From positions 9,660 through 71,750 of the forward strand of contig PBDS01000030.1 of NCBI GenBank assembly GCA_002718155.1: DNA of 62,091 bases, given 5' to 3'. The position numbers and the translations under genes were made by a program. Within the stretch, counting starts at the first letter, position 1. Each line of letters starts with the position of its first letter. Source of the stretch: Pseudomonadota bacterium. Lineage in GTDB: Bacteria > Pseudomonadota > Gammaproteobacteria > Arenicellales > UBA868. This document shows positions 2,725 through 44,019 of the stretch, in pieces. The notes under the pieces were generated by a model that was not told the origin of the DNA, did no database searches, and was given only the letters and a program-made list of their open reading frames with translations.

Positions 2725-4005
2725 TCAGGGTCGCACGCTGCCGGTACCGAACACGATAAACTTGCGCGTGGTCAGCCCCTCCAGGCCCACTGGACCGCGC
2801 ACATGGAGTTTGTCCGTGCTGATACCGATTTCTGCGCCAAGACCATATTCGAATCCGTCGGCAAACTGTGTGGAGGCATTGACCATAACCGAACTGGAAT
2901 CGACCTCCCGCAGGAATCGGCGACTGGTTTCAAGATCTTCGGTCACTACGGCATCAGTGTGACTGGACCCGTAGCGCTCGATGTGCGCGATGGCCTCGTC
3001 CACGCCCTTGACGGTTCTCACAGCCAGTATCGGCGCCAAGAACTCCGTACTCCAATCTGCTTCCCTGGCTGGAATTGCCTGGGGTAGCAGTTCACGTGTG
3101 CGTTCGCAGGCGCGGATTTCCACCCCCGCCTCGCTGTACATCGATCCAAGCCGCTCAAGCACAGTCTCCGCAATGCCTTCGGCGAGCAACAGCGTTTCCA
3201 TCGCCCCACAGACACCATAACGCCGGCACTTGGCGTTGAACGCGATAGCGATCGCCTTGTCGATATCCGCAGCGCCATCGATATACACGTGGCAGTTACC
3301 GTCAAGGTGTTTGATGACGGGAATCATCGACTCCCGGCTGACGCGTTCGATCAGACTGCGACCACCGCGCGGAACAATCACATCTACGTACTCCGACAAT
3401 TTCAGAAGTTCCCCCACGACCGACCGGTCTGTATTGTCAAAGACCTGGATACAGCCTTCCGGCAGTCCTGCATGAGACAGGCCCTGCTGAAGAATACCGG
3501 CGATCGCTAGATTGGAATGAATGGCTTCCGACCCACCGCGAAGTATTGCGGCATTACCGGACTTCAGGCACAAGCCCCCTGCGTCAGCCGTAACATTGGG
3601 TCGGGACTCATAAATGATACCGATAACCCCCAGCGGCACGCGCATTCGGCCCACTTCGATCCCGGAAGGTCGTTGAGTCAGTCCGCTGACCTCACCGACC
3701 GGATCAGGCAACGCGGCAACCTGGCATAACCCTTCAGCCATGGCGGCGATACGGGCAGGTGTCAACTCCAGCCGGTCCAGCAACGCGTCGCTAAGACCAC
3801 TGCTTTCCCCCGCCACCATGTCCGACCGGTTCGCTGCAAGGATCTGAGCCTTGCCATCGGCTGTGCCCTTGGCCATCGCCTGCAGCGCTTCGTTCTTCTG
3901 CCGGGTCGGCGCAGTCGCCAGTATTCTGGCAGCGTCGCGAGCCACAACGCCAAAATCGTGCACATAAGTTGAAATATCACTCGTAATTTTGACCACTTCT
4001 GTCAT
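2725..4005 (-). CDS. proA: Gamma-glutamyl phosphate reductase
   Basis: [33 protein letters not shown]; full-length 426 aa. Confidence 0.95.
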
Positions 4006-4017
4006 TTTTTCAATATC

Positions 4018-5055
4018 TTATGAGATGATCCTCGAAAGTGTAGTTATACCACAAACAGACAACACAACCCGCTCCAACTCGACCCAGGCATCCCCGGCGG
4101 ATGTGCCTCGTCCTTTCAGAACCCGATCCACACCCGACAAACAGCCTAGCAGGCTCGACCAGTAGGATCCGGGGTGGTGCTTCAGTGCCAAATTGACACA
4201 GGCCTCCCGGCTGCGCCAGACCTGATGGCTGCGAAACACGGCTGATCGTGATTCACCAGATTGAAGCGCTTTGGCGATGGCGGCCATGCTGCGCGCCTCC
4301 CGGGCCAGAGCCCAGACCACCAGTACCGCTTCGGTTCCCTCGCGCCTGAGGGCGGTCAGAATCCGCAACGCTCTCCCGGCATCTGTGCCCAGGGCAGCAT
4401 CGACCAGATTGTATACACTGAATCGGGCCTGATCTTCGGTCAGGGCTTCAAGGCGCTCCTCGTCCAGTTCAGCACTCTCATCAAGCAGCACGGCCAGTTT
4501 TCGGATCTCCTGCGCCGCCGCCATCAGATTACCTTCGGCGTAATAGGCCAACTGGTCCACAGCTCCACGGGTTACGCTGATTCCAAGACCCCGAAAGCGT
4601 TGCTGAATCCATTCGGGCAGCTGGTCAGCCGAAAGGGATCGTGCCTCTACGACGACACCTTTTTTCTCTATACCCTTGAACCACTTTGTGGCCTGCGCCC
4701 GTTTGTCGATCCGCCCGGTGAGCAAAACAAGGGTGGTGTCTGTTCCACAGTGCTGTAAAAAATCAAGCAACGCCTTTGAACCCATCTCACCCGGCTTGCC
4801 GGTAGGCAGGCGGACTTCGATCAGCTGGTGGTTCGCAAAAAGTGACTGGGAGCGAGCACTCGCAATCAACTCGGACCAGTCAAGATCGACCCCTGCGGTG
4901 AACCGAAGCACTTCAGCCACCCCGTGGCTGCGCACTTGCTGGCGGATTTGATCAGCTGCTTCTTCAAGCAACAGTGGCTCACTCCCGAACAGAAGATAGC
5001 TACTCGCTAAACCTTTGCCCAGATGCGCAGCAAGTGCTGGTGGGGCAACCCGCAA
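4018..5055 (-). CDS. holA: DNA polymerase III subunit delta
   Basis: YLLFGSEPLLLEEAADQIR; gene order leuS-lptE-holA. Confidence 0.9.
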   Translation of the reverse strand: MRVAPPALAAHLGKGLASSYLLFGSEPLLLEEAADQIRQQVRSHGVAEVLRFTAGVDLDWSELIASARSQSLFANHQLIEVRLPTGKPGEMGSKALLDFLQHCGTDTTLVLLTGRIDKRAQATKWFKGIEKKGVVVEARSLSADQLPEWIQQRFRGLGISVTRGAVDQLAYYAEGNLMAAAQEIRKLAVLLDESAELDEERLEALTEDQARFSVYNLVDAALGTDAGRALRILTALRREGTEAVLVVWALAREARSMAAIAKALQSGESRSAVFRSHQVWRSREACVNLALKHHPGSYWSSLLGCLSGVDRVLKGRGTSAGDAWVELERVVLSVCGITTLSRIIS

Positions 5056-37664: not shown

Positions 37665-38672
<1,008 letters not shown>

Positions 38673-39746
38673 TCAGCGTCGCCCGGGTTTTGTTGCTGAT
38701 GCTTTTTTCCGAGCACCCTTTTTAGCAGCAGCTTTCTTCACCACCTTCTTTACGGCCTTTGCCGCCAGCGGCTTTTTCTTAAGCGGTGCTTTTGCCGATG
38801 CCTTTTTCTGGGCACCCTTCTTGGCAGCGGCTTTCTTCGCCACCTTCTTTACGACCTTTGCTGCCACGGGCTTTTTCTTAAGCTTCTTGACTACTGGTTT
38901 CTTGGCAGTTCTGCTGCTCGACCCTTTTCCCGCAACTGCGTTTTTCTGTTTTCTGCCCTGATCGGAATCGATCGAGCGGTCTTCGTCACTCACTTCCTGA
39001 CGCACCACAGTACCGCCGCTGATCACCGTCACCATGGTGTCATTTGGGTCACGTCGCTTTTCAGCGACGGTAACCTTTTTCTCTAACGGACGAATCTCGG
39101 TATCAACAATCTCACAGATGCGCTCAAAGATCTTCACTGGATCCCCGCTGCCTTCGACCGTGCGCAACTTGTGTTGGGCCCTGAAATAGGTGATCAATGG
39201 TGCAGTGTCCCGGTCATACGCCTCCAGGCGAGCCCTTACTGATCGCTGATTGTCGTCCGATCTCTGGACAAAGTTTCGAGAACCACACTGGTCGCAGATA
39301 CCCCGTTTTGCCGGGGGTGAAAAGTACCGGTTGTAGGTTGCGCCACATTCACCACACTCAGTTCTACCGGTCGTCCGCTTTACCACCACGGCGGGATCCA
39401 GCGAAAAATGCAGCGCCAGCTGCAATGGTCGATTCATCCATCCAAGCCGGGTATCCAGTTGTTGGGCCTGAGGAATCGTCCGTGGGAATCCATCAAGGAT
39501 AAACCCACGTTTGCATTCGGAGCTGCGAAGCTGGTCGGTGACCGCATCGATGACGAGGTTGTCCGAGACCAGGTCACCACTTTTCATGATCGATTCGACC
39601 TTCCGGCCAAGTTCGGTTTTCTCCGCCACTGCCCGGCGCAGGATCTCGCCACTCGAGACCTGTGGTACGCGGTACTTCTCGGCCATGAGCCTGGCTTGGG
39701 TCCCTTTCCCGGAACCGGGTGCTCCCAACAACACAATTCGCATCAT
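38673..39746 (-). CDS. adk: Adenylate kinase with zinc-type lid and Lys/Ala-rich C-terminal extension
   Basis: IVLLGAPGSGKGTQARLMAEKY; FILDGFPRT; lid ECGECGATYN..CDQCGSRN; C-terminal AKKAAAKKGAQKKASAKAPLKKKPLAAKAVKKVVKKAAAKKGARKKASATKPGRR. Confidence 0.93.
   Translation of the reverse strand: MMRIVLLGAPGSGKGTQARLMAEKYRVPQVSSGEILRRAVAEKTELGRKVESIMKSGDLVSDNLVIDAVTDQLRSSECKRGFILDGFPRTIPQAQQLDTRLGWMNRPLQLALHFSLDPAVVVKRTTGRTECGECGATYNRYFSPPAKRGICDQCGSRNFVQRSDDNQRSVRARLEAYDRDTAPLITYFRAQHKLRTVEGSGDPVKIFERICEIVDTEIRPLEKKVTVAEKRRDPNDTMVTVISGGTVVRQEVSDEDRSIDSDQGRKQKNAVAGKGSSSRTAKKPVVKKLKKKPVAAKVVKKVAKKAAAKKGAQKKASAKAPLKKKPLAAKAVKKVVKKAAAKKGARKKASATKPGRR
38700..38897 (-). repeat. Two-copy imperfect ~99-bp tandem repeat encoding the basic tail of Adk (33-aa period; boundaries approximate)
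   Basis: Protein repeats KKKPVAAKVVKKVAKKAAAKKGAQKKASAKAPL / KKKPLAAKAVKKVVKKAAAKKGARKKASATKPGRR; DNA copies ...ctttcttcaccaccttctttacggcctttgccgccagcggctttttcttaag / ...ctttcttcgccaccttctttacgacctttgctgccacgggctttttcttaag. Confidence 0.85.
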
Positions 39747-40020: not shown

Positions 40021-40285
40021 GGCAAGTTCACCGTGCAAGCTTTATGGTGCGCGAGCACCGCTCAGGACAACTTTCGCTATCAGTACTCCTTTAAAGACCG
40101 GGAGAGCTTCCTGGAACTGGTCTTATCGAGTACGGTGACCATGCGTAATGCGTCAGTGGACTCGGGAGGTTCGAATCTGATCATAACCGGTAGAGACAAG
40201 GTGTCGTGTTCGGTGTGATAGGCGCCGATCTGAACTAGAGCTTCGGGTCATCAGATTGGCATCAACACGGGATCAGGAGCACAGA

Positions 40286-41551
40286 ATGAGCAAACCGAGA
40301 AACGCATTTTACGCCCAGTCTGGGGGAGTCACCGCAGTAATCAACGCGACGGCCTGCGGTGTGATCGAGACTGCGCGAGCTAACCGGCGACGGATCGGCA
40401 AGGTCTATGCCGGCCGCAACGGCATTATCGGCGCCTTGACCGAAGATCTGATCGACACCAGTTACGAAACCAAGGGCGCTATTGCAGCCCTTCGGTCCAC
40501 CCCGGCCGGCGCTTTTGGCTCCTGCCGCTACAAACTAAAAAGCTTAGAAGAGAACCAGGACGAATATCAGAGGCTCATAGCAGTCTTCAAAGCCCATGAC
40601 ATCGGCTATTTCCTCTATAACGGCGGTGGCGATTCAGCCGACACCTGCCTTAAGGTATCGCAGCTGTCACAAAGCACTGGCTACCCGATTCAGGCAATCC
40701 ACATTCCTAAAACGGTGGACAACGACCTGCCAATTACCGACAACTGTCCCGGTTTTGGTTCGGTCGCCAAATACATCGCCGTATCAACCCGTGAGGCCAG
40801 CTTCGACGTGGCATCGATGGCCAAGACCTCCACCAAGGTTTTCATCATAGAGGTAATGGGTCGACATGCTGGCTGGATCGCGGCAGCCGGTGGTATGGCT
40901 TCTGATTCGGCAACAGAAATTCCCATCGTCATCCTGTTTCCAGAAGTCGCCTTTGACCGCAGTCGATTCATATCAACGGTCAACCGAAAAGTGAAGAAAT
41001 TTGGCTACTGCACGGTAGTGGTCTCTGAAGGTGCCCGCGACGCGCAAGGTCATTTTCTCGCCGACCAGGGCCTTCGGGATGCTTTCGGCCATACCCAGCT
41101 CGGTGGTGTTGCTCCAATTGTGGCTGCCATGATCAGGGATGACCTCGGCCTAAAATACCACTGGGCGGTAGCTGATTACCTGCAACGCTCCGCGCGCCAC
41201 ATTGCGTCCAGAACCGATGTGGAACAGGCCTACGCCACTGGCAAAGCGGCTGTTGCATTCGCACTGAAGGGGAAAAATGCGGTTATGCCCACCATCGTGC
41301 GAACTTCAAACAGCCCCTACCGCTGGAAGATCGGAGAAGCCGATCTCAACCGCGTCGCCAACCGGGAAAAGACAATGCCCCGCGGTTTTATCAGTCGTGA
41401 CGGGATGGGGATCACAGCCAGATGCCGTCAATACCTGGCGCCGTTGATGGCCGGAGAGGACTACCCACCCTACAGAAACGGGCTTCCGCGGTATATCAGG
41501 TTGAAGAACATCGCGGTAAAAAAGAAACTGGCCAGACAGTTCACGGTCTGA
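40286..41551 (+). CDS. Pyrophosphate-dependent 6-phosphofructokinase (PPi-PFK)
   Basis: NAFYAQSGGVTAVINATACGVIE; FLYNGGGDSADTC; IHIPKTVDNDLPITDNCPGFGS; EVMGRHAGWIAAA; start chosen at MSKPRN. Confidence 0.9.
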   Translation: MSKPRNAFYAQSGGVTAVINATACGVIETARANRRRIGKVYAGRNGIIGALTEDLIDTSYETKGAIAALRSTPAGAFGSCRYKLKSLEENQDEYQRLIAVFKAHDIGYFLYNGGGDSADTCLKVSQLSQSTGYPIQAIHIPKTVDNDLPITDNCPGFGSVAKYIAVSTREASFDVASMAKTSTKVFIIEVMGRHAGWIAAAGGMASDSATEIPIVILFPEVAFDRSRFISTVNRKVKKFGYCTVVVSEGARDAQGHFLADQGLRDAFGHTQLGGVAPIVAAMIRDDLGLKYHWAVADYLQRSARHIASRTDVEQAYATGKAAVAFALKGKNAVMPTIVRTSNSPYRWKIGEADLNRVANREKTMPRGFISRDGMGITARCRQYLAPLMAGEDYPPYRNGLPRYIRLKNIAVKKKLARQFTV

Positions 41552-41698: not shown

Positions 41699-42505
41699 AT
41701 GGATCAGCCAGCTGAAGAGACCCACCTCATTGAGCAGGAACCCTTCTACGCGACCCAAGGCAAGGAAGTCGAAATCTTTGAAGCCGCTTACCGGAACTGT
41801 ATTCCGGTTCTACTCAAAGGCCCTACCGGTTGCGGTAAAACGCGCTTCATGGAACACATGGCATGGCGCCTTGAGCGACCACTGGTCACTGTATCCTGCC
41901 ACGATGACCTGACCGCTTCCGATCTGGTCGGTCGTTACCTGATCATCGGGGGTGAAACACGTTGGATCGACGGGCCACTGGCACAGGCGGTCAGAATTGG
42001 GGCTTTATGCTACTTGGATGAGATCGTCGAGGCCCGCAAGGACACCACCGTCGTCATTCATCCCTTAGCTGATGACCGCCGAGCACTGCCAGTGGAGAAG
42101 ACCGGCGAAGTGATCACCGCACCAACGACGTTCTGCTTGGCCATTTCCTACAACCCTGGTTACCAGAGCGTTCTTAAAGATCTTAAACAGAGTACGCGGC
42201 AGCGTTTCGTCGCGATCGACTTCGACTATCCCGACCCGAAACAGGAGGCCAGCATCATTTGCCATGAATCCGGGTTGGACACTGGGACCGCGGATCTACT
42301 GGTCCGTTTCGCCGGTATGACCCGCAACCTCAAGGGCAACGGCCTGGAAGAAGGAGCCAGTACCCGATTGCTGGTCCACGCCGCCAAGCTGATGCAAAGC
42401 GGAGTGGATCCCAGAACCGCCTGCCGTGGTGCAATCGCCGAGGCGCTGACCGATGAGCCGGACATGCTGGCTGCGGTCAACGAACTGGGGGCAACCTTGT
42501 TCTAG
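41699..42505 (+). CDS. CbbQ/NirQ/NorQ family MoxR-type AAA ATPase
   Basis: PVLLKGPTGCGKTRFMEHMAWRLERPLVTVSCHDDLTASDLVGRYLI; CYLDEIVEARKDTTVVIHPLADDRRALPVEKTGE. Confidence 0.9.
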   Translation: MDQPAEETHLIEQEPFYATQGKEVEIFEAAYRNCIPVLLKGPTGCGKTRFMEHMAWRLERPLVTVSCHDDLTASDLVGRYLIIGGETRWIDGPLAQAVRIGALCYLDEIVEARKDTTVVIHPLADDRRALPVEKTGEVITAPTTFCLAISYNPGYQSVLKDLKQSTRQRFVAIDFDYPDPKQEASIICHESGLDTGTADLLVRFAGMTRNLKGNGLEEGASTRLLVHAAKLMQSGVDPRTACRGAIAEALTDEPDMLAAVNELGATLF

Positions 42506-42592
42506 TCTGATGCGGCTTTGCTGCAACGCGAATCCTGGCAACGCAACGATTTCTTTATTGTTCTTCAAACACCTACCACGAGACCAAAGGCA

Positions 42593-43477
42593 ATGACCGA
42601 TATTCACACCGACCCGGTACTGGGCGTTATCGGCGGAAGCGGCCTTTATGACATCGATGGGCTGGAAAACATCCAGTGGCGAGAATTCCAGAGCCCCTGG
42701 GGAGAACCTTCCGACGCCCTGCTGTGCGGACAACTCGGCGAACTATCCTTGGTCTTTTTGCCCAGGCACGGGCGCGGCCATCGGCTCAGCCCCACAACCA
42801 TCAATTACCGGGCTAACATCGATGTCTTCAAGCGCGCTGGTGTGACCGACATCATATCGCTCTCAGCAGTTGGCTCGTTTCGCGAAGAACTGTCTCCTGG
42901 AACATTCGTGATCGTTGACCAGTTCATCGATCGTACTTTCGCACGGGAGAAAAGCTTTTTTGGCAGGGGTCTGGTGGCCCACGTCTCAATGGCCCGGCCG
43001 GTCAACCCGCGCCTGGCAGACTGGTGCGAGACGGCCTGCCGCAGCGAGGGCATCCCGGCCCACCTGGGCGGTACTTACCTGGCGATGGAGGGGCCGCAAT
43101 TCTCTACCTTTGCCGAATCTCAGATGTACCGCCAGTGGGGTTGTGATGTCATCGGCATGACTAACATGCCAGAAGCCAAGCTCGCCCGGGAAGCCGAAAT
43201 TCCTTATTGCACGGTCGCCATGGTCACCGACTATGACTGCTGGCACCCGGATCACGATAATGTCGATGTCAAGACTATCATTGCGGTGCTGCAGGACAAC
43301 GCAGATCGAGCCCGTGCCCTGATCAAGCAGGTTGCTCCAAGAATGTGCGAGCGACCTGCGATTTGCCCCTCCGGCGACGACCGAGCACTGGAGTCGGCAC
43401 TGATCACTGCCCCCGACGCGCGAGACCCTGAGATGGTCAAGATGCTGGACGCTGTTGCCGGCCGGCTACTACTCTAA
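42593..43477 (+). CDS. S-methyl-5'-thioadenosine phosphorylase family (MTAP/MTIP)
   Basis: [60 protein letters not shown]; start chosen at MTDIHTD. Confidence 0.9.
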
Positions 43478-43491
43478 GAAGTAGATCGACA

Positions 43492-44019
43492 ATGAATATC
43501 GAAGAACTGGTCCGCTCGATACCTGATTATCCCAAGGCCGGAGTAATCTTCCGGGACATCACGACATTGCTCCAGAATCCCGCTGGCTTTCGACGAACCG
43601 TCGATGAACTGGTCCAACCGTTCGCCGGTAGCCACATCAGTTCTGTGGCAGGCATTGAAGCACGTGGGTTCATCTTAGGTGGAGCCGTCGCGCACCAACT
43701 TTCCGTGGGATTCGTTGCTGTTCGCAAAAAGGGTAAGCTGCCCTGGCAGACCATCGGTCAAACATACCAACTTGAGTACGGAACCGATGAGGTCGAGATA
43801 CACATCGACAGCGTCGCAACCGGTGACCGGGTTCTGATTGTTGATGACCTGATTGCAACCGGTGGTACAGCTTGTGCCGCAGCTACCCTGATTCGGGAAA
43901 CCGGTGCAGAGGTGATCGGGGCGAGTTTTGTTATCGATCTGCCGAATCTAGGCGGCAGAAAGAAACTGGAAGACATCGGTGTTCCAGTGCGCACACTGAT
44001 CGAGTTTGAGGGTGACTAA
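43492..44019 (+). CDS. apt: Adenine phosphoribosyltransferase
   Basis: [56 protein letters not shown]. Confidence 0.96.

What the first reader, a model, noticed from the sequence alone, without database searches (positions are those of the whole stretch)
38673..39746. Adenylate kinase fused to a histone-H1-like basic tail
Typical Adk ends near residue ~215; this ORF is 357 aa. The extra C-terminal region begins with a Glu/Asp/Lys-mixed linker (KKVTVAEKRRDPNDTMVTVISGGTVVRQEVSDEDRSIDSDQGRKQKNAVAGKG) and ends with AKK/KKA repeats resembling H1/HU-like or AlgP-type DNA- or polyanion-binding tails. The reading frame is uninterrupted and the tail stops just before hemB. This suggests an ATP/ADP/AMP-balancing enzyme tethered to nucleic acid, ribosomes or polyphosphate, a combination I do not recognise as described.
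Basis: partly seen in the sequence, partly recalled or inferred. Interest (0 to 1): 0.78.

Follow-up and report, generated by a model that had tools for sequence, protein, structure and literature searches.

The report
Adenylate kinases with long positively charged tails
Many Gammaproteobacteria make an otherwise normal adenylate kinase with a long, lysine-rich, selectively maintained tail that probably holds the enzyme on RNA or DNA; I found no paper describing it, although one database model (from Bradyrhizobium-type bacteria) already contains the architecture.

Summary
Window 38673-39746 (minus strand) is one uninterrupted 357-aa frame: an intact zinc-lid adenylate kinase (1-216), a linker, and a ~96-aa K/A/V-rich tail ending against hemB. 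It is not an artefact. The tail occurs in nearly all completely read relatives and in about 87 of 370 species sampled across the class (open frame of at least 290 aa; 93 tails read directly, median 33% Lys, net +57). It sits in one gammaproteobacterial Adk clade, with a separate origin in Bradyrhizobium-like genomes (NCBI model NF010381). Tail dN/dS is below 1 in all 14 computable close pairs. In this order the linker carries a conserved element, T(I/V)IxGGx(I/V)xR. The tailed adk usually lies within 1 kb of a PPi-dependent phosphofructokinase gene. Best reading: an electrostatic tether to RNA or DNA that keeps AMP recycling near AMP+PPi-producing reactions. Binding itself is inferred, not shown. 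Seven searches of the held papers found nothing on tailed Adk.

The parts
38673..39746 (-). adk, tailed adenylate kinase, 357 aa, whole CDS
39099..39746 (-). Adk catalytic core with zinc-type lid (residues 1-216)
   Evidence: NF001380, Pfam ADK and ADK_lid; checked substrate and catalytic positions match E. coli Adk or are conservative; C131, C134, C151, C154 invariant; AF2 pLDDT mostly above 90
38964..39098 (-). linker, residues 217-261, mixed charge
   Evidence: low AF2 confidence except around the hairpin
39000..39029 (-). conserved linker element TVISGGTVVR (residues 240-249), predicted beta-hairpin with GG turn
   Evidence: hairpin 238-251 in the AF2 model at pLDDT about 73, below 50 in a second family member; related pattern once per genome in 18 of 20 f10 genomes, always in adk
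38676..38963 (-). polycationic K/A/V-rich tail (residues 262-357)
   Evidence: tail dN/dS below 1 in all 14 computable close pairs of relatives
38693..38883 (-). 99-bp tandem duplication inside the tail (1.9 copies)
37665..38672 (-). hemB (porphobilinogen synthase), starts directly after the adk stop
   Evidence: NF006762; also downstream of tailed adk in most relatives with enough flank
40256..41551 (+). PPi-dependent 6-phosphofructokinase, divergent neighbour
   Evidence: NF010675 640 bits, cut-off 273; within 1 kb of tailed adk in 56 of 68 class genomes with listed positions
42575..44019 (+). MTA phosphorylase (42575-43477) and adenine phosphoribosyltransferase (43492-44019), which release adenine and then make AMP + PPi
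   Evidence: NF006492, NF002634; MTA phosphorylase conserved beside adk-PFK in family members

Best explanation
This is a catalytically competent adenylate kinase that has gained a disordered polycationic tail. The tail most likely acts as an electrostatic tether to nucleic acid (RNA such as tRNA or ribosomes, or nucleoid DNA), so that AMP is turned over near the reactions that release AMP + PPi. The neighbouring PPi-phosphofructokinase would consume the other product, PPi. Shown by computation: the architecture, its breadth, purifying selection on the tail, catalytic residues kept, the conserved linker element in this order, and the gene neighbourhood. Inferred: nucleic-acid binding, local AMP recycling, and any metabolic coupling with PPi-phosphofructokinase. 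The linker element may be a small docking hairpin; its partner is unknown.
For: Tail present in relatives from many assemblies and in about 87 of 370 class genomes by open-frame length, with 93 tails read (median 33% Lys, median net +57). Tail dN/dS 0.11-0.79 against core 0.00-0.20, so the protein sequence is maintained. Catalytic residues kept in most tailed proteins. Separate origin in Bradyrhizobium-like genomes (tree; sequences), which suggests the same benefit found twice. A tailed Adk goes with having more than one adk: 46/87 against 23/283, as expected if the tailed copy has a special location. Adjacency to PPi-PFK and, in the window, to MTAP-apt, whose last step makes AMP + PPi, fits an AMP/PPi-recycling theme. 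Precedents for Lys-rich disordered segments binding nucleic acid: AlgP and PhaF KPAA tails (PMC9239181) and the human LysRS appended domain, which orders on tRNA (PMC6213541, abstract). Own and family genomes lack polyP kinases, which leaves nucleic acid as the main polyanion.
Against: No binding, localisation or expression data. K/A-rich tails bind any polyanion, so the target is not identified. PPi-PFK adjacency also occurs beside some untailed adk genes (G076, G124, G448), so neighbourhood and tail are not strictly linked. PPi-PFK is only modestly more frequent in tailed genomes (76/87 against 204/283), and species relatedness was not corrected for. In a few lineages the tailed core has lost catalytic residues while keeping the tail, so AMP turnover cannot be the tail's whole purpose there.
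Confidence: 0.5

Rival explanations
1. Polyphosphate-granule tether: the tail places Adk on polyP so that AMP/ADP made with polyP kinases can be converted to ATP locally.
For: AlgP, with a KPAA tail, associates with polyP granules and needs its tail to space them (PMC9239181).
Against: No PPK2 or PPK1 in the own genome, which is 86% complete; PPK1 in 1 of 33 family genomes; no class-wide association (PPK1 54/87 against 171/283, PPK2 47/87 against 166/283); 26 tailed genomes have neither.
Confidence: 0.08
2. Nucleoid or RNA-binding protein that happens to use an Adk fold: in some lineages the tailed copy is a moonlighting or pseudo-kinase nucleic-acid binder and catalysis is left to a second, untailed Adk.
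For: Tailed cores with lost Asp158/Asp159-type residues (L079, L083, L084, L086, L087, L092), three of them in genomes with a second Adk (G086, G087, G089), while linker element and tail stay.
Against: The window protein and most tailed proteins keep the catalytic residues, and the window's genome has a single adk.
Confidence: 0.15
3. The tail is a membrane, phospholipid or protein-partner anchor (for example binding acidic proteins, or self-association through the hairpin) rather than a nucleic-acid tether.
For: Conserved linker elements differ between clades (TxIxGGxIxR in this order, T(L/V)EDLEKKVMEK in six other families), which looks like docking to protein partners.
Against: The only feature shared by all tailed Adks is the Lys-rich tail itself; no hydrophobic anchor was seen in the tails read.
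Confidence: 0.15
4. Near-neutral tandem-repeat expansion: a tolerated low-complexity extension with no specific role.
For: Tail length varies widely (68-326 aa) with tandem duplications.
Against: Tail dN/dS below 1 in all 14 computable pairs; charge is kept across many families; at least two origins and few losses.
Confidence: 0.12

Closest known systems
NCBIfam NF010381 / PRK13808, adenylate kinase of Bradyrhizobium-like alphaproteobacteria
   Same: Adk core followed by a K/A-rich tail (L157, L158: 284-285 aa)
   Different: Shorter alphaproteobacterial core in a different clade, no TxIxGG element; the window protein scores 159 against a cut-off of 426 bits
AlgP and PhaF of Pseudomonas (KPAA histone-H1-like tails)
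   Same: Long disordered Lys/Ala tail at the C-terminus, built of repeats
   Different: The N-terminal parts are not enzymes; repeats are KPAA rather than the KKxAAKK type (PMC9239181)
Valine--tRNA ligase model NF011492 with a K/A-rich end
   Same: Enzyme with an appended K/A tail; weak match to residues 261-349 (23.6 bits)
   Different: Composition-driven match only, cut-off 1783 bits; unrelated enzyme
Adenylate kinases of known structure (5g3y, 1zin and others)
   Same: Core of the same family over residues 2-214
   Different: Chains end near residue 217; no tail

Membership tests
Adenylate kinase (NF001380 / TIGR01351) | Score over the curated cut-off across the whole core | tested here: met
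   252.5 against 251 bits and 222.7 against 168 bits
Adenylate kinase (NF001380 / TIGR01351) | P-loop and catalytic Arg/Asp residues | tested here: met
   GGGKSERDGRRRRDDR at the 16 checked E. coli positions (E. coli GGGKTDRDGRRRRDDR)
Zinc-lid Adk | Four Cys in the lid | tested here: met
   C131, C134, C151, C154 invariant
NF010381 / PRK13808 tailed Adk | Score over the curated cut-off of 426 bits | tested here: not met
   159.4 bits, core only
Histone H1 / AlgP-type proteins | Disordered Lys/Ala-rich C-terminal tail | tested here: met
   composition; AF2 pLDDT about 44-53 along the tail
Histone H1 / AlgP-type proteins | Globular linker-histone or AlgP N-terminal domain | tested here: not met
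   Only Adk and P-loop AAA families in Pfam
Histone H1 / AlgP-type proteins | DNA or polyP binding by the tail | not testable with these tools
   needs biochemistry
PPi-dependent phosphofructokinase (neighbour) | NF010675 over cut-off | tested here: met
   640 against 273 bits

The most novel reading that the evidence does not exclude
A large part of the Gammaproteobacteria runs a spatially tethered AMP/PPi-recycling arrangement: a polycationic-tailed adenylate kinase held on RNA or DNA, with a linked PPi-phosphofructokinase using the PPi, and clade-specific docking elements in the linker. This would be an undescribed kind of metabolic enzyme localisation in bacteria.
Probability: 0.25. Interest if true: 0.8.

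Novelty: new variant of a known kind. Interest (0 to 1): 0.58.

Why it matters
Adenylate kinase is an essential, textbook enzyme that sets AMP/ADP/ATP balance and is usually treated as freely diffusing in bacteria. If about a quarter of sampled gammaproteobacterial species keep a strongly charged tail on it, where the enzyme sits in the cell becomes a testable question. Lineages in which the tailed copy lost catalytic residues separate the tail's role from catalysis.

Tried and rejected
Assembly or frameshift artefact: rejected, since the frame is open in many independent genomes. Polyphosphate granule: tested through PPK1/PPK2 presence, disfavoured. General habit of K-tails in this genome: a codon pattern found only adk, and the tail used as query found only itself; other tail compositions were not excluded. 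Shared short motif with other proteins: a strict motif pattern hits only adk in f10 genomes. Defence-related: no PADLOC match. RNA element around adk and PFK: no Rfam match. Papers: nothing on tailed Adk or an adk-PPi-PFK pair in the held library. The second AF2 model gave the hairpin only at low confidence, so the hairpin is tentative.

Full report
Observation. The finding's coordinates hold a 357-aa frame on the minus strand, from ATG at 39746 to the stop at 38673-38675, with hemB beginning at the next base. Residues 2-216 are an adenylate kinase over the curated cut-off of NF001380 and TIGR01351, with Pfam ADK and ADK_lid. The positions equivalent to E. coli G7, G10, G12, K13, R36, D84, G85, R88, R119, R123, R156, D158, D159 and R167 are kept, with conservative Ser and Glu at 31 and 33. 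The lid has four cysteines. The remaining residues are a linker and a tail with 36 Lys and 23 Ala of 142. A 99-bp tandem duplication makes up most of the tail.

It is not an artefact. Twelve related loci from named public genomes (MAGs labelled Acidiferrobacteraceae, SUP05-clade MED-G25, TMED61, UBA5680 and others) encode the same Adk, and those not cut by a contig end or N-run have a K-rich tail. In the family, 27 of 33 genomes have the gene. Order-wide, tailed forms occur in families f1, f3, f4, f7, f9, f10, f11 and f12, while f2 and f6 have short untailed Adks. In a draw of 370 genomes across the class, about 87 have an Adk frame of at least 290 aa. I read 49 of these class loci; nearly all with long frames had K/A-rich tails. 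One long frame (L152) was in fact untailed and is not counted, so the figure is approximate, and matches weaker than about 5e-69 were not listed. Over all loci, 93 tails were read: complete ones are 68-326 aa long counted from residue 217, median 33% Lys, median net charge +57.

Selection and history. In 14 close pairs with computable values, tail dN/dS is 0.11-0.79, always below 1, against 0.00-0.20 in the core. The tail is therefore translated and constrained, though more loosely than the core; alignment of repeats makes the exact values rough. In a tree of core sequences, 90 tailed rows lie in one supported gammaproteobacterial clade that holds a few untailed rows, some of which are only contig ends, N-runs or weak tails. 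The Bradyrhizobium-like tailed Adks (L157, L158) nest among untailed alphaproteobacterial ones. So the architecture arose at least twice and was lost several times. Genomes with a tailed Adk have more than one adk far more often (46/87 against 23/283; relatedness not corrected).

Linker element. In this order the linker is not random. A T(I/V)IxGGx(I/V)xR element lies about 20 residues past the core in families f1, f3, f7, f10 and f11, with a variant in f9. Within f1, members of genus g6 lack it. A strict DNA pattern for IAGG(E/Q/K)I(N/S)R hits 18 of 20 f10 genomes exactly once, each time just after the adk core, with varied codons and no control hit. AlphaFold2 puts a beta-hairpin with the GG turn there at pLDDT about 73 in the window protein. 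In a second member the same hairpin appears only at low confidence. Six other families carry a different element, T(L/V)EDLEKKVMEK.

Neighbourhood. The divergent neighbour at 40256-41551 is a PPi-dependent phosphofructokinase (NF010675, 640 bits). Among tailed class genomes whose PPi-PFK position was listed, 56 of 68 have it within 1 kb of the tailed adk on the same contig (gaps 211-981 bp); several of the rest lie at contig ends. hemB follows the tailed adk in most loci with enough flank. A few untailed adk genes also sit beside PPi-PFK (G076; G124 and G448), so the neighbourhood is older than, or independent of, the tail. In the window the PPi-PFK is followed by an AAA ATPase, MTA phosphorylase and adenine phosphoribosyltransferase; the last makes AMP and PPi, substrates of Adk and of PPi-PFK (established biochemistry).

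Mechanism. A disordered tail of this charge will bind polyanions. PolyP is unlikely here: the own genome, 86% complete, shows neither PPK1 nor PPK2; PPK1 is in 1 of 33 family genomes; and across the class neither kinase goes with the tail. Nucleic acid is the leading target. I propose that the tail holds Adk near RNA or DNA, where AMP-forming reactions such as tRNA charging release AMP + PPi, and that Adk and PPi-PFK recycle the two products. The binding, the target and the coupling are inference. In a few lineages the tailed core has lost residues equivalent to Asp158/Asp159 (L079, L083, L084, L086, L087, L092) while the linker element or tail remains. Three of those genomes (G086, G087, G089) show a second Adk. 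There the tail must serve something other than AMP turnover by the same molecule, or the genes are decaying.

Known or not. The architecture exists in NCBI model NF010381 (PRK13808); the window protein falls far below its cut-off (159 against 426 bits). AlgP and PhaF share the tail style on unrelated proteins (PMC9239181). Seven searches of the held papers aimed at it found nothing on tailed adenylate kinase or on an adk-PPi-PFK pair; subscription journals are largely missing from that library, so absence there is weak evidence. I rate it a new variant of a known kind.

Noticed in passing
L088 frame at about 2920-4420 (+), L089 frame at about 2911-4410 (+): A single frame of 499-501 aa with two adenylate kinase domains in tandem (Adk-Adk fusion), in genomes G102 and G099 that also carry a tailed Adk.
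   Followed up: partly
L133, L145, L148, L153, L154, L156: A different conserved linker element, T(L/V)EDLEKKVMEKxLxA, between Adk core and K-rich tail in six other families.
   Followed up: partly
L079, L083, L084, L086, L087, L092: Tailed Adks whose cores lost residues equivalent to E. coli Asp158/Asp159 and others while keeping linker element or tail.
   Followed up: partly
genomes G015, G019, G020, G028, G029, G031: Six genus-g6 genomes, three of them at least 90% complete, show no adk at all; the tail repeat often breaks contigs or appears as N-runs (L046, L053), so assembly loss is likely but unproven.
   Followed up: no
window 41699-42505: MoxR/GvpN-like AAA ATPase between PPi-phosphofructokinase and MTA phosphorylase, conserved at 77-84% identity in family members; role unknown.
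   Followed up: no
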